NCBI RefSeq assembly: GCF_014698965.1 | Contig: NZ_JACXAE010000076.1 | Span: forward strand, 1-64,000 | Reading direction: 5' to 3' | From: Iningainema tapete BLCC-T55 | GTDB taxonomy: Bacteria; Cyanobacteriota; Cyanobacteriia; Cyanobacteriales; Nostocaceae | DNA: 64,000 nt | Part shown: one piece after another, positions 1 to 22,025 of the stretch | Layout: the number at the start of each line of letters is the position of its first letter | Position numbering within the stretch: position 1 is the stretch's first letter | Position numbers and translations under genes: made by a program | Notes under the pieces: model-generated | Told to the model about the DNA's origin: nothing | Seen by the model: only the letters and a program-made list of their open reading frames with translations | The model's database searches: none

Positions 1-877
1 ATACAAGTCCCGTAAAGGTTCTAGCGCTAATGGTACGTTTTAGAGCCTCAATTTTTTGAGGACTATCATTTTCAAAAACGGGATTCCAAGTGGCATATTC
101 CTTACCGCCAAAATATGGTGGAGGTGGTTCTGGCTCTGGTTCTTCTGGAGGAAACGCGGCATTGTAGACTGTATCCGCAATTATTCCACCAATCAATCCA
201 CCAACCAACCCACCAACCGGACCGCCTAATGCAGTACCAATGATAGTTCCTGCTAAACTACCGCCCGTACCATAAGCTGCTTGAGCTGGTGGCTGTCCGG
301 CGGCTACGCGAACACCAAACTCGACTGCAGCACCAATAGCAAAGCCTCCTAAAGCATTTTTAGGCGCTGGTGTTGGTGCAGGAGGTTTAGCTGGTGGAGG
401 TGGAACAGGTTCCGGTGGTGGCGGCGGCGGTAGTGGTGGCGGCGGCGGTGGTGGCGGCGGTGGTGGTGGGGTCGGCGCTGGTAAAGGAGCAGGTTTGGGA
501 ATTTTTGGCGCTGGTTTGTGAGGCGGATCAAGTCCAATCGTTTCTTGAGCAGGGTTGGGTAATGGCTTTGGTTCAACTGGCATCGGAACTGGGTCTAAAC
601 CAATTCCCCCAATTGATTCTTGAGCCAAATTTGGTATTGACTTTGGTTCAACTGGCATTGGAATTGGGTCTAAGCCAAATGTTCCTGGATTCGGGTTTGG
701 TAATGGCTTTGGTAGCGGATTTTGATTAGGAACCAGACCTGGAGTAGAACCAATTGTTTCTGGAGTAAAGTCTGGTTTACCCAGTGGGGAGTACTGATAA
801 GACTGAGGTTGATTGTAAACATCAAGAGGCAATGGTAACGGCTTTTGTACAGGTTGACGTTGTAATTCCCCGCTCAT
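1..877 (-). CDS. Proline-rich protein with glycine-zipper segment (3' end outside window)
   Basis: The frame is open from the ATG at 877 to the window edge, so at least 292 residues are encoded and the C-terminus is missing. The N-terminal half carries imperfect repeats of a unit like GLDPxPMPVEPKxxPN followed by AQExIG, then a long polyproline tract. Around residues 190-240 there is a Gly/Ala-rich run with spacing GGPVGGLVGGLIGG that looks like a glycine-zipper membrane-inserting hairpin, then an acidic Pro segment. It lies 24 bp downstream of a small orphan gene and is divergent from a 2OG oxygenase. I do not recognise the family. A membrane-inserting or secreted protein with a C-terminal functional domain is an inference. 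Confidence 0.7.
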   Translation of the reverse strand, partial: MSGELQRQPVQKPLPLPLDVYNQPQSYQYSPLGKPDFTPETIGSTPGLVPNQNPLPKPLPNPNPGTFGLDPIPMPVEPKSIPNLAQESIGGIGLDPVPMPVEPKPLPNPAQETIGLDPPHKPAPKIPKPAPLPAPTPPPPPPPPPPPPLPPPPPPEPVPPPPAKPPAPTPAPKNALGGFAIGAAVEFGVRVAAGQPPAQAAYGTGGSLAGTIIGTALGGPVGGLVGGLIGGIIADTVYNAAFPPEEPEPEPPPPYFGGKEYATWNPVFENDSPQKIEALKRTISARTFTGLV

Positions 878-901
878 ATCAAGTACTCCTTTTACTGTTT
901 G

Positions 902-1207
902 TTAGGCCGCTACCTTAAATTCATTGGGAATTGCTGTCTGCGACAATGCTTCCGCATAAGTCCACGGATTGCTAGTACCTGACAAATGATCAGATGACAT
1001 GGGCAAAGATACTCGAATTAACAATCTATGTTTATTGTCAGCATCAATGAAAAAAGTACCTGCCTGACAAGTTCTTTGTGAGTAGTTGGGAGCTTCTATC
1101 GCCGTCAATGTTAGGTTAATAGACGCGAGAGATAAGCCTACCCAAGCTGCAAGTTTTTCTAAAGTATCAATGTTCGATGGAATATCGCTGGTAGAGAAAG
1201 CAGTCAT
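902..1207 (-). CDS. Small protein of unknown function (101 aa)
   Basis: The gene encodes a 101-residue soluble protein with no signal peptide or membrane segment. It starts at an ATG at 1207 and ends 24 bp before the start of the proline-rich gene, so the two are probably co-transcribed. The middle contains a short beta-rich stretch (FFIDADNKHRLLIRVSLP) that would fit a small barrel-like or chaperone fold. I recognise no motif. A dedicated partner or chaperone for the downstream proline-rich protein is one possibility, based only on adjacency. Confidence 0.6.
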   Translation of the reverse strand: MTAFSTSDIPSNIDTLEKLAAWVGLSLASINLTLTAIEAPNYSQRTCQAGTFFIDADNKHRLLIRVSLPMSSDHLSGTSNPWTYAEALSQTAIPNEFKVAA

Positions 1208-1311
1208 GTTAATTAATTTGTCTGTACATATATCTATTACTATTTAATAACTAATATTGGTTTTAGATAATTAGTAAAAATATTGGTTTTTTTTTTAGAT
1301 CAAACTTACGT

Positions 1312-1851
1312 ATGAATACTTGCTTTCGTATAGATAACTTTTTAAGCTTTAAAGAAAATCAAGCTATCTTGGATTGGGTACTTAACAACGAAAATAGGTT
1401 TAGCCAAAGCTGCGTTACAACTAAAGTCGAAGGTTACAGGCGTTCAAGAATTGCTCATATATTTCCGGTGGGAAGCTATGTGCTGCCTAAACTTATTGAC
1501 CTCCTACCCATGATCACTGAAACCTTGGAGTTGACGTTTGAACTGGGAGTAATTGAATCTCAAATTACTTCAAGCAATGACCAGGATTACTTTAAAAGCC
1601 ATTTGGACGCTTCCATAGATTGCCCAAAACGTGTGCTTAGCTACGTTTACTATTTTCACAAACAGCCCAAAGCATTTACGGGTGGGCAATTAGCACTTCA
1701 CCATAACATAACAACTTTAATTGAACCACTCAACAATTCGTTGATCTGCTTTCCAAGTACATGTTTGCATGAGGTGTTAACTGTTCAATGTCCGAGCAAG
1801 ATTTTTTCGGATGGGAGATTTACTCTTAACGGTTGGATTAATTGTAAGTAA
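1312..1851 (+). CDS. 2-oxoglutarate/Fe(II) dioxygenase, prolyl 4-hydroxylase-like
   Basis: A 179-residue protein with the facial triad of 2OG-Fe(II) oxygenases: H97-x-D99 in SHLDAS, distal H153 in CLHEVL and R169 in DGRF, which would bind the 2-oxoglutarate carboxylate. Family members hydroxylate proline or other residues using O2 and 2-oxoglutarate. The length fits the small bacterial prolyl 4-hydroxylase-like group (PF13640 type). It is transcribed divergently from the gene pair at 1-1207, whose product is a proline-rich protein, so that protein is an obvious candidate substrate, but only by context. No signal peptide is present, which suggests action in the cytoplasm. Confidence 0.75.
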   Translation: MNTCFRIDNFLSFKENQAILDWVLNNENRFSQSCVTTKVEGYRRSRIAHIFPVGSYVLPKLIDLLPMITETLELTFELGVIESQITSSNDQDYFKSHLDASIDCPKRVLSYVYYFHKQPKAFTGGQLALHHNITTLIEPLNNSLICFPSTCLHEVLTVQCPSKIFSDGRFTLNGWINCK

Positions 1852-2006
1852 TTCCTCTTTTATGTAAATTCAGAACTACTTCTGATGACGTACATACCTT
1901 GCTATACATAGCATTGAAACAGTTAATAGCCCTAGCCAAAAATCAAAATGTTCCGAAATTATTACTCACAATAATAAATCCGGAACATTTAAGAAAGAAA
2001 CAGCAA

Positions 2007-2588
2007 ATGAAAAACAACCGAAATGGACAAGCATCCATTTTAAGTACCGAAGAATATTCTAAGCTTCGTAAACAAATCCAAAGTCAAAAATACAAACTTC
2101 TTTTTGATTTGGCATGGTTTACCGGAGAGCGGTGGGGAGCTTTAGTACAGCTGCGTGTTGAAGATGTGTACAACCAGGATTTAACTCCTCGCGAGTACAT
2201 CACTTTTCGCTCGCGTACGCGAAAGGCGTCCCCCGACGGAAAGCGACAAACCCGACAAATTCCCACGCATCCTACACTGCTTGAATCGCTTAAGGCATAC
2301 TCGCCCGATCCAGAATCAGTTTGGCTTTTTCCGAATAAGGACTCAACCAAACCCATCACCCTCAGATGGGCTGACGCTATCTTGCGCAAAGCCATAGAGA
2401 GAGCAGGATTTGAAGCAAAAGGCATTTCAACTCACAGTACCCGCCGGAGCTTTATCACTAAGCTCCACAAAAACGGGACTGACCTTTACACCATCAAGCG
2501 CATCACTGGGCATTGCAATTTTCAAGCCCTGGAACGTTACGTAGACATCGACTCTGACCGCATCAAAGGAGCCATCGCCACTTTATGA
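2007..2588 (+). CDS. Tyrosine recombinase/integrase, catalytic domain only
   Basis: The protein has the tyrosine recombinase signature: R42 in TGERWGAL, H143-x-x-R146 in HSTRRS, H169 in GHCN and nucleophile Y178 in ERYVD. I chose the ATG at 2007 because the open frame upstream (from 1899) is AT-rich and does not look like integrase. The product is about 193 residues, so the N-terminal SAM-like core-binding domain is missing. Minimal integrases of this kind are common on cyanobacterial plasmids and islands. The stop overlaps the next start (ATGA), so both are translated from one message. It probably mobilised or maintains this island. Confidence 0.85.
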   Translation: MKNNRNGQASILSTEEYSKLRKQIQSQKYKLLFDLAWFTGERWGALVQLRVEDVYNQDLTPREYITFRSRTRKASPDGKRQTRQIPTHPTLLESLKAYSPDPESVWLFPNKDSTKPITLRWADAILRKAIERAGFEAKGISTHSTRRSFITKLHKNGTDLYTIKRITGHCNFQALERYVDIDSDRIKGAIATL

Positions 2589-3055
2589 AACCATTGCTTT
2601 TGTTTCACAACAAGTTGGGAGACTCAAGTCAGTTGTTGGAGGGACGCCTACTGCTAATTGACTCAGAATCCAACACAATCAAAAACGTTTACCGCGCTAC
2701 TTCCGGTAGTGCAGGTTGGCAGGAACATCACGAACTAGCGGTAAGGGGAAAGGGAAGTATACCACCCCAAAGCGATGTAAACATCCCACATTACACTGTT
2801 GCCACCAAACCAATTCCAATGCCAAAGCTCAAAGGAGTTGAAGGCAACTTTTACAAGATTGATCCGCATTTGGTGCGAATAAATGGTCAACAACGGGGTG
2901 ATTTTGGTATACACCGAGATGCCAATGTTCCCGGCAGCGCCGGTTGTGTTGTATTAACAACAATCCCTGGTTGGGAAGGATTTCAGTTAGATATGCGAAA
3001 TCTAGCAACCTCTGGAGTTCAAAAAGTTCCTTTACTCGTAAGTTACATCCGATGA
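2585..3055 (+). CDS. L,D-transpeptidase-like protein with H...SAGC motif
   Basis: A 156-residue protein with no signal peptide. Residues 107-123 contain H110 and, after a Gly-Ser spacer, SAGC with C121, which resembles the H...S-x-G-C active site of YkuD-type L,D-transpeptidases and related amidotransferase folds. This motif was identified by eye and the rest of the protein is unfamiliar. The start overlaps the integrase stop by 4 nt and its own stop overlaps the next small gene by 4 nt, so it sits in a tightly coupled operon. A role in peptidoglycan cutting or crosslinking during transfer is possible but inferred. Confidence 0.5.
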   Translation: MKPLLLFHNKLGDSSQLLEGRLLLIDSESNTIKNVYRATSGSAGWQEHHELAVRGKGSIPPQSDVNIPHYTVATKPIPMPKLKGVEGNFYKIDPHLVRINGQQRGDFGIHRDANVPGSAGCVVLTTIPGWEGFQLDMRNLATSGVQKVPLLVSYIR

Positions 3056-3225
3056 CAATACAGCAATCTTATATTTTCCTTCAAATTGAAGAATTCTAAG
3101 CCCAACTCCAGAACGGACAATTCGACCACCCACTGGACTTGGCACGATCACTCCAGGAGCTTGCCGACAAGGGATGGGACCAGGTAGAAGAACTTTACGC
3201 GCCCTGCATCTGCATAGTTCCTTAA
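3052..3225 (+). pseudogene. Small coupled gene interrupted by an in-frame TAA
   Basis: An ATG overlaps the previous stop (ATGA at 3052-3055). Fifteen codons later there is a TAA at 3097-3099. The same frame then stays open for 41 more codons to a TAA at 3223 and reads as a plausible amphipathic protein (for example DLARSLQELADKGWDQVEEL). No start codon opens the second part. The simplest reading is a 57-codon gene broken by one nonsense mutation. Stop-codon readthrough or a sequencing error cannot be excluded. Confidence 0.55.
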
Positions 3226-3260
3226 TCGCTACAATGCCGTGTAACAACGGCAATGTAGCG

Positions 3261-3608
3261 ATGAAAAATAAAACTACCTGGACTAATATCAATGGCTCCT
3301 GGCAACATGGGAAAACTAAAGTTATCAGGGTGCCCGAAGCTCTGGCTGAGCGAATACTCGAATATGCTAGAGCAATTGATGCTTCTGCTCCTATATCTGA
3401 CACGGCATACGACATCCCCGACCGCTACGGGGATGTTTCTCAACAGCAGGAAATTATTCTCCAAGCCCTGGCGTCATATGTTAAGTGGAAGAGGAAGAAC
3501 TATCACCCAAACCAAAATTCAAAACAATTGAATACTGACACCAGAGCCTGGGATGAATTTAGAAAGTTTCAAACAATGGTTCAGGAAAACCCGGAATTGT
3601 TGATTTAG
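3261..3608 (+). CDS. Small DNA-binding-like protein (RHH-type N-terminus)
   Basis: The ATG at 3261 is preferred to the upstream one at 3174 because the 29 residues before it are Arg/Leu-rich and unlike coding sequence here. The 115-residue product has a short basic N-terminus, then TKVIRVPEALAERILEYAR, which has the beta-strand plus helix pattern of ribbon-helix-helix proteins, then a Gln-rich helix and a charged tail. Proteins of this look are frequent on cyanobacterial plasmids and islands. It ends one base before the convergent zinc-ribbon gene. Confidence 0.6.
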   Translation: MKNKTTWTNINGSWQHGKTKVIRVPEALAERILEYARAIDASAPISDTAYDIPDRYGDVSQQQEIILQALASYVKWKRKNYHPNQNSKQLNTDTRAWDEFRKFQTMVQENPELLI

Positions 3609-3887
3609 TTAACACTTAATCTGGTGAAAGGTTTTTTGACAGATTTGACAAATCCAATAAAGAATGGGAGTGCCATCACTTAAAACGCTTCCGCCATTTT
3701 GATTGGTTTCAATACTTAAACAAAATGGGCATTGTGCTATACGCTTTACACCTCTTCTTTGTTGGAAAGTTTTTCGGCAGTCTTGACAAAAATATCTTTG
3801 AACGATAATGCCATCGCAAAGGGTGTTACTGCCATTTTTGTAAGTTCGATTGGATTCGCATTTAGGGCATTGTGGTCTTTGGTTCAT
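3609..3887 (-). CDS. Double zinc-ribbon protein
   Basis: A 92-residue protein built of two similar halves. The first has CPKC at residues 8-11 and CQDC at about 34-37, the second has CPFC at about 53-56 and CQIC at about 80-83. Each pair of CxxC knuckles surrounds a short beta segment ending in RKTF or QKTF. This is the pattern of the N-terminal zinc ribbon of IS1-type InsA proteins and transposase zinc ribbons. With no catalytic domain it is probably a small nucleic-acid-binding protein or a leftover of an insertion sequence. Its start overlaps the upstream gene by 26 nt. Confidence 0.65.
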   Translation of the reverse strand: MNQRPQCPKCESNRTYKNGSNTLCDGIIVQRYFCQDCRKTFQQRRGVKRIAQCPFCLSIETNQNGGSVLSDGTPILYWICQICQKTFHQIKC

Positions 3888-4449
3888 GATTTGAAAGTAG
3901 TAACTGCTTTATTTCACATGGTGACAGTCCCGACGCGATCGCAATCTCCACAGCTTCCTTTTTTGTTTGAGCGGCGCGAGATCGCACACTGCCAATGTAA
4001 ATGCGATTGAGTTTGCGCCCCTGCATCCACATATAGCGGTAGTACCAATATTTATTCCCACCGCGCTGCACCCAATACTTCTCCACCCAGTGAGCGGTAT
4101 CGTGTTGGGGAGCAGATTTTTTAGTATCTTGTTTAACTTGCTCCCCAACAAGTGAATCTACTAGGTCTGTTGTTGCATTTTCTGTAACTTGCTCCCCAAC
4201 ACTTTGGTACTGAGATTGGGTTAAAGTTTGTTGGGGAGCAGACAGGAAAGAAAGTTGCTCCCCAACAAAGTCATCGTGTTGGGAAGCAGTGCCGTAAAGA
4301 TTACATTCGTCAAAGTTATCACAGTCCTCACTTTGGGACGACTCACGTAGAATTTCATCCCAGTAAGGATCGAGAATTGGTACGTAGGGATTTGACGGTT
4401 TCGTTGGAGCTATGTTGAGGGGAAGTTCTAATTGCTCGTGTTCTTTCAT
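3862..4449 (-). CDS. Island protein with VGEQ repeats
   Basis: The ATG at 4449 overlaps the stop of the upstream gene (ATGA), so translational coupling fixes this start; the product has about 195 residues. The N-terminal half is acidic and Gln-rich and contains three VGEQ motifs and related APQ motifs, encoded by both orientations of one 11-bp repeat. The C-terminal half (VEKYWVQRGGNKYWYYRYMW and following, then an alpha-helical SGLSPCEIKQLL) looks like a compact DNA-binding domain found in cyanobacterial plasmid proteins. The function is unknown. Confidence 0.6.
   Translation of the reverse strand: MKEHEQLELPLNIAPTKPSNPYVPILDPYWDEILRESSQSEDCDNFDECNLYGTASQHDDFVGEQLSFLSAPQQTLTQSQYQSVGEQVTENATTDLVDSLVGEQVKQDTKKSAPQHDTAHWVEKYWVQRGGNKYWYYRYMWMQGRKLNRIYIGSVRSRAAQTKKEAVEIAIASGLSPCEIKQLLLSNHEPKTTMP
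4104..4288. repeat. Six copies of an 11-bp repeat in both orientations
   Basis: The element GTTGGGGAGCA occurs on the plus strand at 4104-4114, 4230-4240 and, with one mismatch, 4278-4288. Its reverse complement TGCTCCCCAAC occurs at 4139-4149, 4190-4200 and 4256-4266. All lie within one gene, where one orientation encodes VGEQ and the other encodes APQ. Confidence 0.9.
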
Positions 4450-5084
4450 AGTGCCACCCCTATTTCTTCCCAATATCGCCACTGCAAACAATCGATTAGC
4501 CAACCTTGTGGATTACGGATTTTTTCATGCCCACCGCGAATGAAGAATGAAGCAATGGCTAGCTTGATTTCTTCTACTGAGTAAGTAAAAATTCTCGCTG
4601 GTTTATTAGGAGGATAATTGATACCAGCCTCGTTACAGATTTCCAGTATTTCCTCTTTGTCCCCCGCGTCATTGTGAGGATAGCTGCTGCTGTTAACCTC
4701 GTTTTCAATTGACTGCGGATTTGAGGTTTGTGAAGCGTAAATTTCATTCTGCTTTTGTAAGTTTTTTTTCGGTAGCAACCAGTCAAGTGGGCGTGTAACT
4801 ATTTTGACAATCCGCCAAGTGTACTGTTTTATGAGGGTTATGACCCTACACTCTACGAGTTTGGCAAGTGCATTTTTGAGCGTGAGACGACAGTAGCCTT
4901 TACCTCGGTGCTTCTTTACCCAATCGTTGAATTCGGCTAAGTCTGGTTCGGTTTCTTCACCAATCCCTTGAATTATCAGCCACTGCCATAGAAGCTTGGC
5001 GGCGGGGGGAATTTGATTTTCTAAACAAAAAGCCTCGTGTTTTTGTGACCAGCTTGATAGTCTGTTTTTGGTTTTTTCTGTCAT
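4446..5084 (-). CDS. Winged-helix, replication-initiator-like protein
   Basis: A 212-residue protein. Residues 20-100 look helical and winged-helix-like (KLLWQWLIIQG, then LTLKNALAKLVECRVITLI). The C-terminal 50 residues include NPQGWLIDCLQWRYWEE, which resembles the C-terminal motif of DnaD-like and plasmid replication proteins. These resemblances are by eye only. The gene heads a coupled pair with the VGEQ protein (ATGA overlap). In an island context it may be a relic replication or partition factor. Confidence 0.5.
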   Translation of the reverse strand: MTEKTKNRLSSWSQKHEAFCLENQIPPAAKLLWQWLIIQGIGEETEPDLAEFNDWVKKHRGKGYCRLTLKNALAKLVECRVITLIKQYTWRIVKIVTRPLDWLLPKKNLQKQNEIYASQTSNPQSIENEVNSSSYPHNDAGDKEEILEICNEAGINYPPNKPARIFTYSVEEIKLAIASFFIRGGHEKIRNPQGWLIDCLQWRYWEEIGVAL

Positions 5085-5152
5085 AATTTGGTTAGTAATT
5101 GTGCCATGAGCCGCTTGATAGTTGATAGATAAAAAGCGGCTTTTTGGTTTTT

Positions 5153-5506
5153 TTAGTGCCGATCGCGCTCTAAGTCGTAAATCACTTTCTCTAAGTACCA
5201 GTTATCTGACTTGCCTTTGTGTAGTTGTCGCTGCTGCTTTAGTAAGCGTTTAGCTGTAGCAATGTCACCGCGAAGTAAGCCGATAAGTCTATGCTGTAGT
5301 TCCCGGTTTCTCGGGTCATTGCGGTAGGATGATGACCATTTGCCCTGTCGCTGCTGTGGTGAACGTCGTGGCTTTTTTGGGATTTGAAAACCAATTGGTT
5401 CACGAGATTTGAAATAGTGCCTGAACCTTGCAAAGAGGTCTTCTACTGATGCAATTAGGTAAACTATCTGCTGCAACAGGTAGAGTATTTGTGTTAGTAA
5501 TTCCAT
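5153..5506 (-). CDS. Basic island protein, unknown function (117 aa)
   Basis: A 117-residue protein with a hydrophobic, helix-forming N-terminus (about residues 1-25, ELLTQILYLLQQIVYLIASV) followed by a strongly basic, Arg/Gln-rich region and a C-terminal helical segment ending in IYDLERD. It may be peripheral to the membrane or bind nucleic acid. The gene follows the same direction as its neighbours, with 68 bp to the gene downstream. I recognise no family. Confidence 0.55.
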   Translation of the reverse strand: MELLTQILYLLQQIVYLIASVEDLFARFRHYFKSREPIGFQIPKKPRRSPQQRQGKWSSSYRNDPRNRELQHRLIGLLRGDIATAKRLLKQQRQLHKGKSDNWYLEKVIYDLERDRH

Positions 5507-5639
5507 AGGTTTGAGTATTGAAGACTACTCAATCCAACTTGCGGGGTATTTCCTAGTACAGCATCGGGAAAACTCCGCATTTTCATTTGAAGAATTACCA
5601 CATACATGAAAACCGTCCTACTTGTGGGGTGGGACGGCT

Positions 5640-6019
5640 CTATTCGGATTCCACTTCTTGTTCACCCAAAAGCTCAAGTACCTGCTTTTCTAGGTGCTGT
5701 ATGGTTTCAATAATTTGGTTTCGGTGTTCTGTATCTGCAGCTAACTGAGATTCAAGGGATTTTCTGCGGTCGTCTAAAAATGCCAGGTGAGCTTTTTGTA
5801 AATCTCTCAACTGGCTAGCAATTTTCCCAGCACTTCCTTGTCCTCCACCAATATCTTCTTCTCCAAGTGAATCTCTCCGCGTGCTATTTGGGTTAGAAAT
5901 TTGGTTCGAGTCATGCCCATCTGTTGAGCTTTGACTTGAAGGGCTTCCCAATCTTGAATTGACATTCTCAACGTTGCGTTTACGGTTTTCTTCTGCGGTT
6001 GCGAGTTTTGGTCTGTCAT
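5640..6019 (-). CDS. Putative -1 frameshift fusion: RHH domain plus coiled coil
   Basis: If ribosomes slip back one base at GGGAAAA (plus-strand 5822-5828), the RHH protein continues as IASQLRDLQKAHLAFLDDRR and a further coiled-coil segment to a stop at 5640, giving about 126 residues. The heptamer fits X XXY YYZ in the upstream frame. Six bases after it GCCAG (5815-5811) could pair with CTGGC (5786-5782). The upstream part of the second frame (start at 6038) is Asn/Ser/Arg-rich and looks like a shadow frame, whereas its downstream part looks genuine. A simple frameshift mutation is the alternative. Confidence 0.5.
5807..6019 (-). CDS. Ribbon-helix-helix-like protein (70 aa)
   Basis: The 70-residue product contains TVNATLRMSIQDWEALQVKA, then QMGMTRTKFLTQIARGEI, the strand-helix-helix pattern of RHH regulators and MobC-like relaxosome proteins. 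Just before its stop the frame contains the heptamer G GGA AAA, and the -1 frame after it encodes a good coiled coil (see the fusion entry). Four CACGTG palindromes lie directly upstream and are likely its operators. The best Shine-Dalgarno sequence (AAGGGG) lies 16 nt upstream and is better placed for ATGs at 6038 and 6032 in the other frame, so the start is not certain. Confidence 0.65.
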   Translation of the reverse strand: MTDQNSQPQKKTVNATLRMSIQDWEALQVKAQQMGMTRTKFLTQIARGEIHLEKKILVEDKEVLGKLLAS

Positions 6020-6050
6020 CGTTAGCTTGCATAATCATCCCCTTAAATTA

Positions 6051-6157
6051 TTGCACGTGCTAATCAGCGAGAGTTTGCACGTGCTTGTTTAAAAAACCCT
6101 TGACTTTTACTTTTGCACGTGCAATTAATAATTACATACCAAGGTTATCACGTGCAA
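6051..6157. promoter_or_regulatory. Array of four CACGTG palindromes (operator or iteron region)
   Basis: TTGCACGTGC occurs at 6051-6060 and 6075-6084, the full palindrome TTGCACGTGCAA at 6113-6124, and CACGTGCAA at 6149-6157. The array begins 13 bp upstream of the coding frames at 6038. A plus-strand promoter-like TTGACT (6100-6105) with TAATAAT at 6126-6132 overlaps the third copy. Spacing is irregular (24, 38 and 35 bp). Autoregulatory operators for the RHH protein are the likeliest reading; plasmid iterons are the alternative. Confidence 0.7.
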
Positions 6158-6446
6158 GTAGTTTTGCTAAGTGATACCAGCCCCCTCCCACGCTGCTTTA
6201 TGCCTAGTGGGACACCCAAATAAACCGGGGCAAGCACCCATGACACTGCAGCGCGTGCCGTCGTGGAAACAACCTAAAACTGAATACACATCCATCGCGA
6301 TCGCGCTTCTTGCTTCGCGCACTCAACCAAACCAAGGAGGACACTCTATGTAATAAAACACTCACAAACGAAACGTTCTTGCAAATCGCACCAGCTACCT
6401 GGGTGCTGATTTGTGCTGGTGCTTCTTAAAACTTGGATTCAATTTT
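6158..6446 (+). other. Leader region with SD plus ATG-TAA and a hairpin
   Basis: I see no convincing gene here. A perfect AAGGAGG (6334-6340) is followed after 7 nt by ATG TAA TAA (6348-6356), a start directly followed by stops. Downstream, GCACCAG (6388-6394) can pair with CTGGTGC (6416-6422). The stretch leads into the gene pair at 6447-6838 and could be an untranslated leader, or the scar of a deleted gene. Confidence 0.5.
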
Positions 6447-6638
6447 ATGACATTAGACAGTTCAACTCACAAACCGTGGGTAGTTTTCCGTGTGCTGAAA
6501 ATTCAATATTGCCAGCCCGTAGGACGCTTCCGTTCGCGGGTCGATGCAGACTGCTACCTTAAAGTCGCGAGGAAATTGCAGCCGGGATGTTACACGACGG
6601 TTTGGCAGCCACCACAGCCACCAAAATCTGAATCTTAA
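6447..6638 (+). CDS. Small paralogous island protein A
   Basis: A 63-residue protein from the ATG at 6447; an upstream ATG at 6411 would add an atypical Cys-rich extension. It shares a pattern with the next gene: KPWxxFR near the N-terminus, RFRxRxDAxxYL in the middle and a following xxRxxxPG. The shared pattern in both proteins supports both being real genes, formed by duplication. The fold is probably small alpha/beta. Function unknown. Confidence 0.6.
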   Translation: MTLDSSTHKPWVVFRVLKIQYCQPVGRFRSRVDADCYLKVARKLQPGCYTTVWQPPQPPKSES

Positions 6639-6643
6639 ATGAT

Positions 6644-6838
6644 ATGACTAAACCCAAAAACCACATTAAGCCGTGGGCAATTTTTCGATGGACCTCACCC
6701 GTCAATAGCTCTTGTATCATGCGATTCCGGCATCGAGGGGATGCTGAGGGATACCTGCAAATTTTGCGCCAGAATTCACCTGGCGCGAATTTGCGGCTAG
6801 TGTTTGACCATGATAGTACCACTGTCAAGATAGATTAA
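6644..6838 (+). CDS. Small paralogous island protein B
   Basis: A 64-residue protein that begins 5 bp after the stop of paralog A. It matches A in KPWAIFR, FRHRGDAEGYL and the PG turn before a hydrophobic beta strand (LRLVFD). The two are diverged at most other positions, so the duplication is old. They are probably translated together. No known family was recognised. Confidence 0.6.
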   Translation: MTKPKNHIKPWAIFRWTSPVNSSCIMRFRHRGDAEGYLQILRQNSPGANLRLVFDHDSTTVKID

Positions 6839-6935
6839 CCCGGACTACATGTGAGCGAGGCTTTGAAACTCACATGTGGTCAACAGGATCTATCTACCTT
6901 AAAGCACAGTATAAGCGGCTCTTTCAGGAAATGTC

Positions 6936-7268
6936 ATGCAATACAAGACCATTGTTTATGAACGAAGCAAGGGCGACAACTACAATCGCCAATCGCTTAG
7001 ATTTGAAGTTCAAGTAGGCGAAAATGAGGATTTAGTATCAATCTTGGATTGCCTAACAGCAACCGTAGATCAACAACTGGGAATCAACTCGGAAATATTA
7101 GAGCGGGAAACCAAACGACTCGAAGGTAGGAAGCTCGATTTAACTAACGAGATTGAAAACATAGAATCTCAGCTTATTCTTGCCAAAGAACGCATTATGA
7201 AGGCAAAGCTTTTTTTAGAAAAGAATGGTATTCCCATACCAGGAGAATATGACCACTTACCATTTTAA
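6936..7268 (+). CDS. Coiled-coil island protein (110 aa)
   Basis: The 110-residue product has an N-terminal beta-rich part (KTIVYERSKG...LRFEVQVG) and from residue 40 to 95 a strongly helical, charged segment (LERETKRLEGRKLDLTNEIE and on) that should form a coiled coil. The C-terminus is IPGEYDHLPF. It lies 5 bp ahead of the next gene. Proteins of this look occur on cyanobacterial plasmids, but I cannot assign a function. Confidence 0.6.
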   Translation: MQYKTIVYERSKGDNYNRQSLRFEVQVGENEDLVSILDCLTATVDQQLGINSEILERETKRLEGRKLDLTNEIENIESQLILAKERIMKAKLFLEKNGIPIPGEYDHLPF

Positions 7269-7273
7269 AAGTC

Positions 7274-7756
7274 ATGGCAACTCAAAAACATATAGCTCAA
7301 GCAAAGGAAGTAATAAAAGAGTATATTCGCAGCGCGGTAGTGGGCGGCGGCATCAGGATACCTGTAGAGGATGAAGCTAATTTGGCTCTTTTTCAGCAAG
7401 TCAACCGTAGTGCCGACATTCAAAGTATGGCAGCACAAAAGCACATCGCTGCCATAGAATTTTACATTCCCGACGTGGTAGGACAAGCCAAAGAACACAT
7501 GCTGAAATACATTAATGGGGCAAGGAGTGAGGTCAGGCAAGTAATTTTTCCGTGCTTGCATCAAGACTACGTAATTTATCATCAAGCATTGCAATCAGAT
7601 GAAATTCAACGCGCCTTACAGCGACGTGGGATAACTGCATCTTTGCGCACTGTAAGCAGGGATGGGGAGCCTTGCCCGGACATCATAATTGCGACTCTTG
7701 AAGATGCCCACAACGGAAAATTAAAACGCTTCTTAGAAAAGTTTGAAGGACCATGA
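7274..7756 (+). CDS. Island protein with duplicated QKHIA segment (160 aa)
   Basis: A 160-residue soluble protein. The first residues (MATQKHIAQAKE) recur at residues 52-60 (MAAQKHIAAIE), which suggests that a coding segment was duplicated or that the gene is a fusion of two short genes. The rest is mixed alpha/beta with no recognisable catalytic motif. The stop overlaps the next start (ATGA), so the pair is translationally coupled. Confidence 0.55.
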   Translation: MATQKHIAQAKEVIKEYIRSAVVGGGIRIPVEDEANLALFQQVNRSADIQSMAAQKHIAAIEFYIPDVVGQAKEHMLKYINGARSEVRQVIFPCLHQDYVIYHQALQSDEIQRALQRRGITASLRTVSRDGEPCPDIIIATLEDAHNGKLKRFLEKFEGP

Positions 7757-7989
7757 ATGAAACTTTAGAAAATAACAATCATCCCCTACCAGATCCAGCT
7801 TGGGATTACTACGAAACCTGGGAACAACTGCTCAAAGCTAAAGAGGAAATCGACAAAGCTCTTGCACTGATAAAAGTAGAAGAAGTAGGTAATGATGATT
7901 GCGACTTCCACGCTAATCAGCACGTACAAGACGCGATCGCGGCTTTAGACTCAATTGATTTTGGGATTGACAAGGAAGATTACAAATAA
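7753..7989 (+). CDS. Small acidic protein (78 aa)
   Basis: A 78-residue acidic protein (many Glu and Asp) with a central helix (WEQLLKAKEEIDKALALIK) and a second helix (QDAIAALDSIDFGID). Its ATG overlaps the preceding stop. The stop codon TAA is part of the TAACGCC repeat that marks the left boundary of the IS110-like element, so the element may have inserted at, or altered, the end of this gene. Confidence 0.55.
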   Translation: MNETLENNNHPLPDPAWDYYETWEQLLKAKEEIDKALALIKVEEVGNDDCDFHANQHVQDAIAALDSIDFGIDKEDYK

Positions 7990-8329
7990 CGCCCGATGAG
8001 TCGGACTAACCCACCGGCGAAACGGGTCAAGTTAGCGGTAAAGGGCGTAGCGGTCAATGCTGGCAAGTGGTGCTTTTTGGTATGCCACACTCGCACGTCT
8101 ACCCGTCGCGTATTGGGTCCAAACCATTGCGTCCCGTTATCAGCAGGGAATGCGGTGTTAAAGAGGAAATGCGCCCCAAAGAGCGTATCGTTTTTCAGGC
8201 GCAGCTTCCCTGTTGAGCGCGGGTTTCCCAGTTCGTTAAGGAGTGAATCGCGCATCTTGTGTGAGGCGTTAGGGTGATTCTTGCGTTAACTGGGTCTTAA
8301 ATTTAGACAAAACCCAAATTTACAGAACC
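7990..8329 (+). ncRNA. Candidate bridge RNA region of the IS110-like element
   Basis: The stretch lacks a credible gene; a 93-codon plus-strand and a 91-codon minus-strand frame both read as Arg/Ser-rich shadows. It is visibly richer in G and C than its surroundings and has hairpin-forming pieces, for example TCCC/GGGA around 8132-8149. GGCGTTA at 8265-8271 is an inverted copy of the boundary TAACGCC. In IS110 elements this position encodes the bridge RNA with target- and donor-binding loops. I could not match the loops to flanks by eye. Confidence 0.4.
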
Positions 8330-9700
8330 ATGACAACTGAATTAAAAGTGATCGGCATCGATGTTTCAAAATCAAACGTCACGGTTCACATTTTATCCGC
8401 TTATCCCAAAGGAGGGTTAAAAAACTATTGGGATAAAACTAGGAATAAGTCCTCAAGCTTGTACCCAGTTTTTTACAGCAACCCTCGCAATAAAGAAACA
8501 CAGAAAAGTGCTTTTGAGTTTGCTGATTTTGTCAAAGAAAATCAACTCAATTTGGCTATATTGGAGCCAACAGGAAACCACTACAGTCGATTGTGGGCAA
8601 TGATATTGTCAAGTTTAAAAGTCGAAATTCTTTGGGTAGGACACGTCGAGTTGCGGCGCTACCGTGAAGGCAAGAACTTGCCCAACAAATCTGACGCTGC
8701 TGATGCCCTGGCAATGGCTGCGTACACGTTAGATGTGGAACATCACACAGAAGATGGGGAATTGAACAAGCGATACTTCCTGCTGCACCGCCCTTACCCC
8801 ATTGATGACCTCAGGGAGATGTGCCAGCAGTTGGAACATCTCAACCGAGTTCAAAACCCAATTATCAATTATGCCAGACAACTACTCGCTTGGCAGTTCC
8901 CGGAAGTCGCGCTTTCTCAATCAAGAACTACTTTAGAAGGAAAGGTCCCTCCACTGTGGGGATGGCTGGCATCTCGACAGTCCGAGGTAGCTCCTAACAG
9001 TTGGAAGCGTTTACAAAATCAGTACACCAAATCAATAGCTAACGCTTACTGCATCAACTTTGATCCATTTTTGAAGTTACATGCAGATTGGTTGTGTGAC
9101 ATTGAATTGTATGCTCAACAACTAGAGGGTAAAATCTCCCAGTTATTAGCTAACGAATGCTTTAGTGTTTACAACCGCATCTTTGATACATTTGGCTTTG
9201 GTTTACGAGTTCGCTCTAGGTTACTAAGTCGAATTTACCCATTTGAAGCTTTTCTGGTTGACAGCAAACCTCTCATTGAGTACGAGATCCGAGAAGTTAA
9301 AAAGGTAGAGAAACAGCGCATTGATGGAAAAACCGTCGTCAAACGTTCCCCTGGAGACAAGAAACGAATTAAACGCAACCGCAGCCGGGACGCCTTCAAA
9401 ATGCGGCTAGGTATGGGGACGGTGCTTGAGTCGTCAGGTGATGAGTTGGTAGAGAAAGCTAGTGGTTCGGCGCTGTGCCGAAAATCAATTTGGCAATATG
9501 TGCTTTGCCAAATTGAAACCGGAAAGCTTCCCGTCAACAACATCACTCTTGAGCTTGTCAAATACAGGGATGACCTAAAAAATCTTACCAACTCCCAGGG
9601 CAAGCAACTTCTTAATGGTAAGCACTTGCAGGGCAAGCTGATGGCCAAAGTGGTCAATTTGCTCTTTCGGGAACTCGTAGCGGCGATCGCCAAAAAGTAG
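8330..9700 (+). CDS. IS110-family DEDD transposase (recombinase)
   Basis: A 456-residue protein. The RuvC-like DEDD motif is present: D10 in IGIDVSK, E in ILEPTGNHY near residue 80, and two Asp in KSDAADALAMAAY near residue 122. The C-terminal Transposase_20-like part has GFGLRVRSRLLSRIYPFEA and ends in GSALCRKSIWQYVL, where the catalytic serine is expected. It is longer than typical members (320-400 residues), with a basic insertion at about residues 315-350. IS110 recombinases use a bridge RNA to pair donor and target DNA. The gene appears intact. Confidence 0.85.
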   Translation: MTTELKVIGIDVSKSNVTVHILSAYPKGGLKNYWDKTRNKSSSLYPVFYSNPRNKETQKSAFEFADFVKENQLNLAILEPTGNHYSRLWAMILSSLKVEILWVGHVELRRYREGKNLPNKSDAADALAMAAYTLDVEHHTEDGELNKRYFLLHRPYPIDDLREMCQQLEHLNRVQNPIINYARQLLAWQFPEVALSQSRTTLEGKVPPLWGWLASRQSEVAPNSWKRLQNQYTKSIANAYCINFDPFLKLHADWLCDIELYAQQLEGKISQLLANECFSVYNRIFDTFGFGLRVRSRLLSRIYPFEAFLVDSKPLIEYEIREVKKVEKQRIDGKTVVKRSPGDKKRIKRNRSRDAFKMRLGMGTVLESSGDELVEKASGSALCRKSIWQYVLCQIETGKLPVNNITLELVKYRDDLKNLTNSQGKQLLNGKHLQGKLMAKVVNLLFRELVAAIAKK

Positions 9701-9825
9701 TAAGATTTTCTAACGCCTGGTGCCGCGTAATTTTAGGGAAGGCTAGAATTTAAAACCGAGGGGAGGAAGTGAAAACTTTCGCCTCTCAACCCAAAAATTA
9801 TTAATTGAGCTTATCTAAATAGAAG

Positions 9826-9857
9826 CGATTGATTTCCGGCGGGAAATCAATCGTTTT
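9826..9857 (+). terminator. Rho-independent terminator-like hairpin
   Basis: CGATTGATTTCC (9826-9837) and its perfect complement GGAAATCAATCG (9842-9853) enclose a 4-nt loop and are followed by TTTT. The perfect 12-bp stem lies 125 bp past the transposase stop. The rest of 9701-10144 holds a receptor remnant and the promoter region of the NADH dehydrogenase gene. Confidence 0.7.
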
Positions 9858-9918
9858 CAGACTATCGGTTGCGAGAATCGTTTTATACTTGATACTTAAC
9901 GCAGTTGACTAGAGTGAA

Positions 9919-12806: not shown

Positions 12807-13706
12807 TTGGACATGACCAGTATTAAAATCAGGCGTAGAGACGGTTCGGTTGCTGCTCTAAATACACTTGTTGATGGATTATCTAGTCCGGCGAAACTGA
12901 TAGAAGGGATTGGATTTGTTCAACGTTTTGAGGTAGCTGCTGGGGAAACGTCGGAAATTATCCGACTCGATCACCACCTTACGCTCAATCGAAGAGGAAA
13001 TTTTACGCTAACCTCAACTCATGAGGGGCAACGACTAGGGGCGTGCCTCGTGAGTGCAGGGCATATTCATTTCCGTCCGGCATTAATGCCACATTCTTCA
13101 GTGTGGGATGGTGAAACAGCATTTACGGTAATTGCGCTCAATCCTACTTTTGTTCAAACCTGTGCAATAGATTTTTTTAAGCAAGTCTGTTTTGCTACGT
13201 TTCGTCCAGTAATTGCACAACAGGATCAGTTATGCTGGGCGCTTGGTTCTCGCCTTGAAGCGGCTGCTTATGATGAAGTACAGTCTCCTCGCGTTTTTGT
13301 AGAGGAAGTTGCAACCCTGCTAGCAATGCATTTACTTCTGACTTACGGTAGCAGTGTTTCTACTCGTGCAGTGTCACATATTGCTTTAACTGAAACAAAA
13401 CTCAAACAACTATATGACTATATTGAAGATCGTATTTGCGAAGATATTGGGTTGCATGAGTTGGCAAGCTTGTGTGGTTTAAGCAAATATCATTTCTGTC
13501 GCCAGTTCAAGCAAATTACTGGAATGACTGCACATCAATATGTTATTCATCGTCGAATTGAGGCGGCGAAACGGTTGCTTGCTAAACAAGAACTAACTAT
13601 CAGAGCCGTGAGTGAATGTTTGGGATTTGCAAGTCACAGTCAGTTTACTGCATTCTTTCGTAGGTATACAGGTGTAACGCCTCAAGTATTTCGACAAAGG
13701 CTGTAG
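12807..13706 (+). CDS. AraC-family transcriptional regulator
   Basis: A 299-residue protein with an N-terminal cupin-like effector/dimerisation part (residues 1-185) and two helix-turn-helix motifs in the C-terminal 100 residues: LHELASLCGLSKYHFCRQFK and TIRAVSECLGFASHSQFTAF, closing with FRRYTGVTPQVFRQ. Length and layout are standard. A tandem-repeat operator lies just upstream, and the short-chain dehydrogenase 122 bp downstream in the same direction is a likely target. Confidence 0.9.
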   Translation: MDMTSIKIRRRDGSVAALNTLVDGLSSPAKLIEGIGFVQRFEVAAGETSEIIRLDHHLTLNRRGNFTLTSTHEGQRLGACLVSAGHIHFRPALMPHSSVWDGETAFTVIALNPTFVQTCAIDFFKQVCFATFRPVIAQQDQLCWALGSRLEAAAYDEVQSPRVFVEEVATLLAMHLLLTYGSSVSTRAVSHIALTETKLKQLYDYIEDRICEDIGLHELASLCGLSKYHFCRQFKQITGMTAHQYVIHRRIEAAKRLLAKQELTIRAVSECLGFASHSQFTAFFRRYTGVTPQVFRQRL

Positions 13707-13828
13707 CTCTATCTGAAGAAGGATTTTGGTAAACAACCGCAACTTTTGATCAGCTTGGGCAAGATTTACTCAAGACAACTTTGAGGTAGCTTAGTAATCT
13801 CTGTATAGAGGTTTCAGTAGGCTAATAA

Positions 13829-14728
13829 TTGATGAAATCTAAGACACGGCGTAGAGTAATCATTGGGAGTGGAGCTACTCTAACAGGTTTAACAGCTGGC
13901 ACAATTACGGCAAATCAAACGAATGCTCAACCAATGCCTCCTGCTTCAAATTCACAAGGTGCAGGTCGATTTAGTAACAAGGTTGTGCTAATTACAGGTG
14001 GTACAAGCGGTATCGGTAGGGCAACTGTTGAGGCGTTTGCAGCTGAGGGAGCGAAAGTGACTTTCTGCGGACGGCGCGAACAACTGGGTAAGGAAGTTCA
14101 GGCGAACGTTCGTGCTAAGGGCGGTGATGTACTCTATATTCGTGCGGATGTGCTCAACCCTGATGATGTACAAGCGTTTGTGCAGAAGACGATCGCTACC
14201 TATGGTCGGATCGACATTGCATTTAACAACGCGGGAGTCTCCACTCAAGGCAAAGTTCATGAAACCTCTGAGGAGGAGTGGGATCGAGTTGTTGATACCA
14301 ACCTCAAAGGCGTATGGCTTTCAATGAAGTATGAAATTCCGCAGATGCTCAAGCAAAAAAGTGGTGTCATCATTAACAACTCGTCCGTACAGGGGTTTGC
14401 AACTCGTCCTGGTGGATCGCCTTATGCTGCAACTAAAGCTGGCATTATGAGCCTGACTCGCTCGGCGGCTCTTGAGTATGGCACTTCTGGTATTCGAGTC
14501 GTTGCGATCGCACCAGGTATTATTGATACTCCATTGTTTCGACGCTATAGTGAACTGGCGAAAACTTCAGAGGGGCTTGCCCAAATTGCAGAAAATGTCG
14601 GTGGTTTAAAGCGAATTGCGATAGCAGATGAAGTAGCAAAGGCAGTGCTGCTACTCAGTTCTGACGAGGCATCTTATATTACAGGATCTCCCCACATCAT
14701 TGATGGTGGCTTACTAGCAGGGTTTTGA
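13829..14728 (+). CDS. Short-chain dehydrogenase with Tat-like leader
   Basis: A 299-residue SDR oxidoreductase. The N-terminus has three arginines before a hydrophobic run and ends in NQTNAQP, like a twin-arginine export signal, which is unusual for an SDR. The Rossmann motif TGGTSGIG is at about 57-64, NNAG at about 135, the catalytic Ser in NNSSVQG and YAATK at about 199-203. Family members oxidise or reduce alcohols or ketones with NAD(P)H. A terminator follows. The AraC gene upstream is the probable regulator. Confidence 0.85.
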   Translation: MMKSKTRRRVIIGSGATLTGLTAGTITANQTNAQPMPPASNSQGAGRFSNKVVLITGGTSGIGRATVEAFAAEGAKVTFCGRREQLGKEVQANVRAKGGDVLYIRADVLNPDDVQAFVQKTIATYGRIDIAFNNAGVSTQGKVHETSEEEWDRVVDTNLKGVWLSMKYEIPQMLKQKSGVIINNSSVQGFATRPGGSPYAATKAGIMSLTRSAALEYGTSGIRVVAIAPGIIDTPLFRRYSELAKTSEGLAQIAENVGGLKRIAIADEVAKAVLLLSSDEASYITGSPHIIDGGLLAGF

Positions 14729-14802
14729 AAACTGAACTATGGGAACGTGAAATATGATTCAAGTGAAATTTCCTTAAGATTAATTTGTTAAAGCTATATA
14801 TA

Positions 14803-14838
14803 TTAGGGTAGCTAGTTTTCTGGCTACCCTAAATATCT
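14803..14838 (+). terminator. Rho-independent terminator after the SDR gene
   Basis: TTAGGGTAGC (14803-14812) pairs perfectly with GCTACCCTAA (14823-14832). A run of six T follows after ATATC. It lies 75 bp after the SDR stop and ends that transcript. The rest of 14729-15006 carries only the leader of the next gene. Confidence 0.85.
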
Positions 14839-15006
14839 TTTTTACTTAGGGGAGTGAGTGTATAGTACCGTGTTGTGGTATAAACAAAGTTGGTAAAGTG
14901 GTTGGTAACTCCAATAGTTACTTTGTAGTAATTTCCAACTGGAAGTTAACGGCACTATCCTTAGCCAAACGGTTTAATTTTTTAATAGTAGGTAGACGTA
15001 TAGTTT

Positions 15007-15618
15007 ATGAACATTACTCGTGGGATTGCAATTGTATCTTTAACACTGTCATTACTAGGGGGATTAGGACAACCTACCTTAGCTAACCCTGTAGGAAAAA
15101 ACTCAACCTCTAGGGAACAAACAGATTGTTCAGGTGGTAGGTCTGAGCAATTTGAATTGGGTGGTCAAGTCGTAAATCGCAGAACCTTCAACTTATCAGA
15201 TTTGCAATCATTCCCAGCAATAGAAGTCAATGCCAGCTTCCGAACAATGCAAGGACAGGAAAATCGTACCTATGTCGGAGTGCCTTTATGGAATCTGATC
15301 CAAGCAGCAGGCGGACTTAGACCCAATCCCGATCCAACAGTAAGAAACAACTTCCTTCGTCAGTACATTGTGATTGAAGCTACTGATTGCTATCAGATAG
15401 TTTTGGCGGTGGGTGAAATTCAACCAAACTTTGAAGGTAAGAATGTAATAGTTGCTTATGCAACCAAAGACGATTCGTCTGATGATCCACAACTACTAGG
15501 AGATGATCTAGGATTTGCTCGTCTAATAGTTCCAGGCGATCAAGCCGGTGGACGTAATATTTTCTATATAAGGCGTATTCAAGTGCTATCTGCTCCTGAT
15601 TTTCGTTTTAAACGTTAG
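15007..15618 (+). CDS. Secreted molybdopterin-binding (SUOX-fold) protein
   Basis: A 203-residue protein with a signal peptide ending near LANP (residue 27). The mature part follows the sulfite-oxidase-type molybdopterin-binding fold: FELGGQVVNRRTFNLSDLQ, TYVGVPLWNLIQAAGG, YQIVLAVGEIQPNF and ARLIVPGDQAGGRNI. Small single-domain members are found near molybdenum uptake genes in bacteria, which fits the ModA-like and molbindin genes nearby. It is convergent with the ModA fragment at 15654. Whether it binds cofactor or has become a binding protein for something else cannot be seen. A single Cys pair (C41, and C in TDCYQ) may form a disulfide. Confidence 0.7.
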   Translation: MNITRGIAIVSLTLSLLGGLGQPTLANPVGKNSTSREQTDCSGGRSEQFELGGQVVNRRTFNLSDLQSFPAIEVNASFRTMQGQENRTYVGVPLWNLIQAAGGLRPNPDPTVRNNFLRQYIVIEATDCYQIVLAVGEIQPNFEGKNVIVAYATKDDSSDDPQLLGDDLGFARLIVPGDQAGGRNIFYIRRIQVLSAPDFRFKR

Positions 15619-15653
15619 AAAAGTCTTGAACATAATTAGCACTCTGCTTGATT

Positions 15654-16085
15654 TCAACTTTCAAGATTCAAGATATTTTTCCTCAAAACAACAACTATAC
15701 CAACCGCAAGAAGAATTCCATATATATCTTGAGATTCTGGGATAGAAGCTGAAGCAGTACCAGAGGGGCTAGTAAAACCATACTTTGCTAGGATTTTTTG
15801 TCCAGATGGTGAAAGAATATAATCAACAAGTTTTGCTGTATCAGGGTTTGCATTTTTGATGATTGTTAAACCGTATTCGGCTTTAACTGCTAAATTCTCT
15901 GGTAATTCTACTACCTGTAGATTCGGTGACAATTCCAGTGCTGAAATGGCGCTGGTGTAATAAACGATTTCTGCATCTACTAGTTGAGTATCTTCAATAA
16001 AGTAGACAATACTACCACCTGAACTATTTCTTTCAGGTGGTAGTGTTCCTGACAAAATGATGGATTTTGCATCTTCGTTGTTCAA
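15654..16085 (-). pseudogene. 5'-truncated ModA-like substrate-binding protein (C-terminal part)
   Basis: About 140 codons match the C-terminal 40 percent of the intact ModA-like protein at 18932: IVYYTSAISALE, QVVELPENLAVKAEYGL and YILSPSGQKILAKYGFTSP, then a hydrophobic tail SIPESQDIYGILLAVG ending in RKN. The start, signal peptide and first lobe are missing and the sequence begins directly after the stop of the TonB receptor gene. It is a duplicated, truncated copy. The tail resembles a PEP-CTERM sorting signal. Confidence 0.75.
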
Positions 16086-18911
<2,826 letters not shown>

Positions 18912-18931
18912 GGCTACTACTCATCTTAGGG

Positions 18932-19867: not shown

Positions 19868-19893
19868 GATTTTTAGCATTGTTTACAATCTTT

Positions 19894-19920
19894 GTAGAGA
19901 CGTTCCGCCGGAACGTCTCT
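19894..19920. repeat. Palindromic GTAGAGACGTT element
   Basis: AGAGACGTTCC and its exact complement GGAACGTCTCT surround a 3-nt centre, 27 bp upstream of the ModA-like gene start. It belongs to a dispersed palindrome family also seen at 42289, 57809 and, in variant form, 60173. The region 19880-20053 holds nothing else I can recognise. Confidence 0.8.
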
Positions 19921-20053
19921 GAGCTTGTTTTTCACGCCTACAGATACGTTTATTAATGTTTAACTATAAACATTTATATGTACGTAATTTTTCTGAGCGA
20001 AGCTATCATACCAACAATATTGGCAAAAGTCAAATTGACTATGTTATCAAACC

Positions 20054-21315: not shown

Positions 21316-21454
21316 TTTCTTGTATCCTGCACCCTCAGCCTACGCTATCTAGTTTTAGATATTTTATCACCAACTATGTAGGTAGAATATGGTCAATTTT
21401 TTCATGCAGATGAGTAAAAGAGTTGTTACCACAGTTAGATGATTTTGCCTGACT

Positions 21455-21742: not shown

Positions 21743-21892
21743 TCAATTCCCCTGTTTATAGTTTTTCTTAAATTATATTTAATCTAATTTTAACCTATGT
21801 GTTTTTCATAACACCATAATTGACGACTAATTACGTAACATCCTCCCAAAGGAATAAATACCAAAATAGTAGGTTAAATAGTAAGCTTTCGG

Positions 21893-22025
21893 TGCCGTAC
21901 TCTGAAGCGACGCGGGCAACCAGAAGAGGTGGCTGTGGGAATTGCGTTTTTATGTTCGAGGAAGATCGAGCTTTGTACTAGGTGCTAGCTGGCGAGTGGA
22001 TGGTGGTTCGGTTGCAACTGTGTAG
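21893..22025 (+). pseudogene. Remnant of a short-chain dehydrogenase C-terminus
   Basis: TLKRRGQPEEVAVGIAFLCS (from 21899) matches the late helix of SDR enzymes. After a frame change near 21960 the sequence continues as SSFVLGASWRVDGGSVATV and a stop at 22023. Together they look like the last 40 residues of an SDR broken by a frameshift, with nothing of the rest left. The surrounding 21743-22138 holds no gene. Confidence 0.65.

What the first reader, a model, noticed from the sequence alone, without database searches (positions are those of the whole stretch)
7987..9717. IS110-type element with a candidate bridge RNA
A DEDD transposase of unusual length (456 aa, with a basic insertion) follows about 340 nt of structured non-coding sequence, and short TAACGCC direct repeats flank the whole. 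This is the layout of bridge-RNA-guided recombinases. The enzyme is diverged from known types, so its RNA may have new loop architecture.
Basis: partly seen in the sequence, partly recalled or inferred. Interest (0 to 1): 0.75.

Follow-up and report, generated by a model that had tools for sequence, protein, structure and literature searches.

The report
Ribozyme-cut guide RNA in giant IS110 element
The 'IS110 insertion sequence' is really the right-hand end of an 11-17 kb cyanobacterial mobile element whose RNA-guided recombinase has a bridge RNA that matches its insertion sites, and directly in front of that RNA sits a conserved self-cutting (hammerhead) RNA that probably cuts the guide RNA free of the element's own messenger RNA.

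Summary
The finding is real but larger than described. ORF 8330-9700 is an IS110-type DEDD recombinase (NCBIfam NF051857). The 340 nt before it hold two things: a hammerhead-ribozyme fold (7989-8111, predicted cut 8107/8108) and a bridge RNA (about 8108-8293). In relatives the bridge RNA guides match the insertion flanks (left 112/115 bases, right 117/138; shuffle maxima 69 and 72). The element does not end at 7987/9717, and the TAACGCC repeats are chance. The right end is 9918. In relatives the left end (GAA|TCCCCA) lies 9-15 kb upstream, giving 11-17 kb elements with about 20 cargo genes, inserted without target duplication and once as two identical 15,393-bp tandem copies. In the window the left end lies beyond the contig start. 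The hammerhead is found in 52 parsed loci across Cyanobacteria, down to 30% recombinase identity, with strong compensatory changes and a covarying pseudoknot. A covariance model trained on close relatives finds it in front of this recombinase almost exclusively. Rfam and the papers searched do not report it. Most likely it frees the bridge RNA 5' end from cargo read-through transcripts; that step is inferred. The window copy has U4 changed to C and may be impaired.

The parts
1..9918 (+). Right-hand part of a large mobile element; left end (expected TAAGAGGAA|TCCCCA) lies beyond the start of the contig
   Evidence: Cargo gene families shared in order with mapped 11-17 kb elements; no GAATCCCCA left end in window 1-8000; window base 1 is base 1 of contig C76
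1899..2588 (+). Cargo: short tyrosine recombinase, family 1, present in 18 of 19 elements
   Evidence: Pfam Phage_integrase 7.2e-18; family table
3862..6038 (-). Cargo: minus-strand genes of families 2, 5, 24 and 7, conserved in the elements; function unknown
7274..7756 (+). Cargo ORF of family 18, 160 aa
7753..7989 (+). Small cargo ORF (78 aa, family 6) whose stop codon abuts the hammerhead
   Evidence: same position in C50 copy at 77% DNA identity
7989..7992 (+). Hammerhead stem I, 5' strand (ACGC), pairs with 8108-8111 (GCGT)
7993..7999 (+). Hammerhead core CCGAUGA (family consensus CUGANGA; U4 to C in this copy)
   Evidence: 50 of 52 loci have U4; window and L063 have C4
8000..8018 (+). 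Hammerhead stem-loop II (GUCGG-ACUAACCCA-CCGGC); loop 8009-8013 pairs with 8114-8118 (pseudoknot)
   Evidence: family pseudoknot
8019..8107 (+). Hammerhead GAAA and long stem III (8022-8027 with 8101-8106), cleavage triplet GUC, predicted cut after 8107
8108..8293 (+). Bridge RNA: 5' stem-loop 8109-8131, target-binding loop about 8133-8223, donor-binding loop about 8227-8293
8160..8168 (+). Left target guide AAAGAGGAA
   Evidence: position in A2 alignment, coordinates; family test
8188..8197 (+). Right target guide UCGUUUUUCA; reverse complement TGAAAAACGA against right junction TGAAAAAAGG
   Evidence: coordinates and flank read directly
8238..8247 (+). Left donor guide AAGGAGUGAA, matches right end TAGAGTGAA
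8269..8280 (+). Right donor guide UUAGGGUGAUUC, complementary to left end GAATCCCC
8330..9700 (+). IS110-type DEDD recombinase, 456 aa; D11 E79 D122 D125 and S369 invariant in 24 relatives
   Evidence: NF051857 E 2.6e-136; alignment A1
9910..9918 (+). Right end of the element (TAGAGTGAA), shared core GAA
9919..9990 (-). Right flank: fragment of a TonB-receptor-like reading frame (reverse strand), the probable target gene
   Evidence: sequence read directly and established motif knowledge; not confirmed by an empty site

Best explanation
This is the recombination module of a large (11-17 kb) cyanobacterial integrative element. A promoter in the cargo region transcribes through the last small cargo gene, a type I hammerhead ribozyme, the bridge RNA and the recombinase gene. 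The hammerhead folds co-transcriptionally, held by a loop II to 3' tail pseudoknot, and cuts at GUC|GCG, giving the bridge RNA a defined 5' end. The freed GCGG strand of stem I then forms the 5' hairpin of the bridge RNA. The recombinase with bridge RNA joins the donor junction (RE TAGAGTGAA | LE TCCCCA) to a target TNNNNNGAA|NNNNNN chosen by the target loop, inserting the whole element without target duplication. Shown by sequence: module, guides, ends, empty sites, covariation. Inferred: ribozyme cleavage, its purpose, and recombination chemistry by analogy with IS621.
For: Recombinase: NF051857 E 2.6e-136; DEDD and SG invariant. Guides: LTG-left flank 112/115, RTG-right flank 117/138, shuffle maxima 69 and 72 of 100,000. 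Ends: 23 mapped elements; precise gap-free empty site for a 15.2-kb element in other genomes; joined flanks restore tnpB and other reading frames; identical tandem copies with an RE-LE junction between them. Hammerhead: 850/884 stem cells paired against shuffle maximum 648, core CUGANGA in 50/52, GUC/GUA/AUC triplets; 97.8% paired, covariation 0.294 against 0.019-0.038 when slid; model trained on close relatives finds the window copy and distant members, and 27 of 30 genome-wide loci carry this recombinase downstream, 2 more are cut by contig ends. No promoter-like site on the plus strand between 7200 and 9550.
Against: No transcript or cleavage data. The window copy has U4 to C, a core position that is otherwise constant. 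Rfam hammerhead models do not match any copy. Three intact relatives keep the bridge RNA but have a plain hairpin instead (L075, L076, L088), so the ribozyme is not strictly required. Some left ends were chosen among candidates by their match to the guide, which inflates the left score (the right score is free of this). The predicted recombinase structure was too poor to use (pLDDT 43).
Confidence: 0.78

Rival explanations
1. The hammerhead is active but serves to regulate the recombinase message (cutting it off from cargo mRNA, lowering or stabilising expression) rather than to mature the bridge RNA.
For: The hammerhead lies in the 5' leader of the recombinase gene at all loci; some relatives lack it and keep the guides.
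Against: The cut falls exactly at the first paired base of the bridge RNA 5' hairpin in all groups, not near the start codon, and the distance to the start codon varies.
Confidence: 0.15
2. The hammerhead-like fold is a conserved structural domain (protein or DNA recognition, part of the RNP) that does not cleave.
For: The window copy and L063 keep all stems while losing U4; Rfam does not match.
Against: All catalytic core bases are kept in 50 of 52 loci over large divergence, and the triplet changes only among cleavable ones (GUC, GUA, AUC), which cleavage explains best.
Confidence: 0.05
3. Ordinary 1.7-kb IS110 insertion sequence with ends at the TAACGCC repeats; upstream sequence is host flank.
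For: Layout looks like an IS110 element to the eye.
Against: Repeats are chance; right end is 9918; guides match ends 11-17 kb apart; empty site and restored frames fit the long element only.
Confidence: 0.02

Closest known systems
IS621 and other IS110 elements with bridge RNA (PMC11208160, PMC11208158)
   Same: DEDD recombinase with invariant serine, upstream RNA with a target loop and a donor loop, each with two guides that match the two DNA strands; insertion without target duplication; no terminal inverted repeats
   Different: Element is 11-17 kb with about 20 cargo genes and the module at its right end; a hammerhead precedes the RNA; core is GAA rather than CT; recombinase is 400-460 aa against 326 and Pfam PF02371 does not match; both papers mention ribozymes only as cloning tools or not at all
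seekRNA of IS1111/IS110 elements (PMC11187229)
   Same: Short guide RNA from a non-coding region matching both target strands
   Different: There the promoter forms at the joined ends and processing is thought to be by the transposase; here a cis ribozyme is predicted to make the 5' end
Bacterial hammerhead ribozymes near prophage integrases (PMC3088659)
   Same: Conserved core, pseudoknot that holds stems I and II together
   Different: Not described with IS110 or cyanobacteria in that paper; stem I of only four pairs; not matched by Rfam
NCBIfam NF051857 transpos_IS110_2
   Same: Full-length match, E 2.6e-136
   Different: A protein family name only; no RNA, ends or element size are part of it

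Membership tests
IS110 RNA-guided recombinases | DEDD catalytic residues of the RuvC-like domain | tested here: met
   D11, E79, D122, D125 invariant in 24 sequences
IS110 RNA-guided recombinases | Tnp domain (PF02371) with catalytic serine | tested here: inconclusive
   PF02371 not matched; full-length match to NF051857 and invariant S369-G370; structure prediction too weak
IS110 RNA-guided recombinases | Bridge RNA with target and donor loops whose guides match target and element ends | tested here: met
IS110 RNA-guided recombinases | Precise insertion without target duplication | tested here: met
   Empty site aligned without gap in two genomes for the L008 element
IS110 RNA-guided recombinases | RNA-guided recombination activity | not testable with these tools
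   needs a recombination assay
Hammerhead ribozyme (family of copies) | Core CUGANGA...GAAA...NUH with three helices | tested here: met
   50 of 52 loci, helices supported by compensatory changes
Hammerhead ribozyme (window copy) | Core with U4 | tested here: not met
   CCGAUGA at 7993-7999; rest of fold kept. Filed as a hammerhead-derived fold, activity uncertain
Hammerhead ribozyme | Match to a curated Rfam hammerhead model | tested here: not met
   no match at gathering or E up to 10; this tests the models, not the core
Hammerhead ribozyme | Self-cleavage | not testable with these tools
   needs in vitro transcription

The most novel reading that the evidence does not exclude
A widespread class of large cyanobacterial mobile elements uses a bridge-RNA recombinase as its integrase, and a cis-acting hammerhead ribozyme, conserved across the family, generates the 5' end of the guide RNA from a polycistronic cargo transcript: the first DNA-recombining guide RNA matured by its own ribozyme.
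Probability: 0.7. Interest if true: 0.92.

Novelty: new variant of a known kind. Interest (0 to 1): 0.86.

Why it matters
How IS110 guide RNAs are made is open; the literature suggests processing by the transposase. Here evolution appears to have supplied a ribozyme that defines the 5' end exactly, which explains how a guide can be made from the far end of a 12-kb operon and gives bacterial hammerheads a clear job. It also shows natural bridge recombinases moving 11-17 kb with no target duplication, which bears on their use for inserting large DNA, and offers a new recombinase clade with a different core (GAA) and a fixed T at the outer target position.

Tried and rejected
TAACGCC direct repeats as ends: chance. 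Element as 1.7-kb IS: rejected. Early idea that 7753-8126, shared with the C50 copy at 77%, was a common host target: rejected, it is cargo plus hammerhead inside the element. Left junction at window 7838-7850 (AAAGAGGAAAT matches the guide): rejected, no TCCCCA follows, coincidence inside the small ORF. Left end elsewhere in the own genome: pattern search gave no convincing site. Window empty site in relatives: not found, flank differs. Viral origin: no relative of the recombinase in IMG/VR or phage records; a conserved cargo protein has no phage match. Rfam, PDB, PADLOC and NCBIfam searches of RNA and cargo gave nothing decisive. AlphaFold of the recombinase: unusable.

Full report
What was claimed.

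The recombinase. ORF 8330-9700 matches NCBIfam NF051857 (transpos_IS110_2) over its whole length, E 2.6e-136, and the general IS110 model over residues 7-221. Pfam finds only the DEDD domain below cut-off and not PF02371. In 24 relatives D11, E79, D122, D125 and S369 are invariant; relative to the ~400-aa branch the window protein has extra segments, one of them basic. A second, 42%-identical copy is on contig C50 of the same genome. Relatives are common in Nostocales and occur across Cyanobacteria.

The RNA region is two things. All relatives share a motif CCGC-CUGANGA-[stem II]-CGAAAC-[stem III]-GUC-GCGG upstream of the recombinase. This is a type I hammerhead. Parsing gave 52 distinct loci: core U4 kept in 50, triplets GUC 47, GUA 3, AUC 2, and 850 of 884 stem cells paired against a shuffle maximum of 648. 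Stem I also shows compensations (CCGC/GCGG, CGGC/GCCG, CCAC/GUGG, UCGC/GCGA and, in the window, ACGC/GCGU). Loop II pairs with the bases just 3' of stem I: total pseudoknot pairs 261 against a maximum of 210 in 20,000 shuffles. On a 17-sequence alignment the structure scores 97.8% paired and covariation 0.294; slid by 1-3 columns it scores at most 44.5% and 0.038. Such pseudoknots are described in bacterial hammerheads (PMC3088659).

Independent test. A covariance model trained on 17 close relatives (not the window) found the window copy at 7989-8123 (44.6 bits, E 3.6e-8 in 589 kb) and nearly all distant members, but not the three that by eye lack a hammerhead (L100, L101, L088). In 293 genomes of the order it gave 45 hits. 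Of 30 of these read in detail, 27 have the recombinase downstream, 2 stop at a contig end but still show the bridge RNA, and 1 (L191) stands alone. Rfam matches none. A loose pattern scan outside the position has a background of roughly one per 90 kb, so the position-specific conservation is not chance.

The window copy has U4 changed to C and a long stem III, both shared with L063. From general knowledge of hammerhead mutants this should reduce cleavage; I did not test it.

Bridge RNA. The next part (about 8108-8293) folds as a 5' stem-loop, a target loop and a donor loop (z -4.1). Each loop has two guide strands. The donor guide UAGGAGUGAA matches the right end TAGAGTGAA; where the guide is CUCCUGAA the right end is ACCCTGAA, and where it is GGACUGAA the end is AGACTGAA. 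The right target guide, reverse complemented, equals the DNA just right of the right end.

Finding the left end. Searching each locus for its left target guide followed by the donor motif gave no hit nearby, but a conserved GAATCCCCA site 9-15 kb upstream, preceded by the guide sequence. Over 23 elements the left guides match their own flanks in 112 of 115 positions and the right guides in 117 of 138; the best of 100,000 reassignments reached 69 and 72. In some loci the left site was chosen among several by its match, so the left value is inflated; the right value is not. The outer left target base is always T although the guide base there varies.

The elements are 11.4-17.2 kb in the main set (about 10 kb on the TIOX110 plasmid). 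One genome carries two identical 15,393-bp copies in tandem, joined RE-LE (TTAGAGTGAA|TCCCCAATATGG), with outer flanks that fit both guides. Joining the flanks restores reading frames of tnpB-like, LOG-like, DUF2887-like and cas1-like genes (names from sequence motifs). For the 15.2-kb element of G132 the unoccupied site is intact in other genomes at about 92% with no gap at the junction.

Cargo. About 20 genes in conserved order, 18 of 19 elements with a short tyrosine recombinase (PHROG integrase 7.8e-28) and most with a long coiled-coil protein; most genes are unannotated. An F5/8 type C domain protein and a weak tape-measure match hint at phage ancestry, but there are no matches in phage or viral collections. 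Window 1-7986 carries the same families. The window begins at the first base of contig C76 and the left end was not found in the assembly.

Mechanism. No promoter-like site was found on the plus strand between 7200 and the recombinase start, and a cargo stop codon abuts the hammerhead at most loci. The simplest reading is read-through from the cargo operon, ribozyme cleavage at GUC|GCG, and a bridge RNA that starts with the strand that was stem I, now able to form its own hairpin. Processing of IS110 guide RNAs is otherwise thought to be by the transposase (PMC11187229). Loss of the hammerhead in a few members shows it can be dispensed with.

Novelty. No paper in the held library links hammerheads with IS110; preprints and most subscription papers are not covered. 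The parts are known kinds; their combination, the element size and the clade are new to me.

Noticed in passing
L177 (G618:C55), about 1500-2130 of the reverse-complemented locus: Two hammerheads about 570 nt apart flank a small ORF upstream of an IS110_2 gene, as if each operon unit were cut out.
   Followed up: no
L191 (G247:C29:125447-125515): Hammerhead with GUA triplet in an operon of small ORFs with no IS110 recombinase downstream.
   Followed up: partly
L075/L101, L076/L100, L088: Relatives that keep the bridge RNA (and, in the first two, the TCCCCA left end) but have a plain hairpin in place of the hammerhead.
   Followed up: partly
L110 and L112 (G030:C10): Two identical 15,393-bp elements in tandem, with the donor junction recreated between them.
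   Followed up: yes
L046 (L017 element), left end: Two copies of the left-end sequence TCCCCAAAGAGTTGGAACC 54 bp apart.
   Followed up: no
L093 (G006:C1, about 2754000): Element inserted near the 3' end of a cas1-like gene; joined flanks restore the frame.
   Followed up: partly
window 1312-1851, 5810-6019 (-), 2585-3055: Cargo ORFs: a 2OG-Fe(II) oxygenase (4.3e-15), a NikA/MobC-like protein (1e-05), and an unassigned 156-aa protein.
   Followed up: partly
window 7989-8123 and L063 hammerheads: The only two copies with C4 also share a long stem III with conserved sequence (near CAAGTTAGCGGTAAAGG), as does the U4 copy on C50.
   Followed up: no
L197 6057-16196 (CP150887.1 about 12970-23109, plasmid of Aphanizomenonaceae TIOX110): A named public plasmid carries an element of about 10 kb with hammerhead, bridge RNA, left and right ends.
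   Followed up: yes
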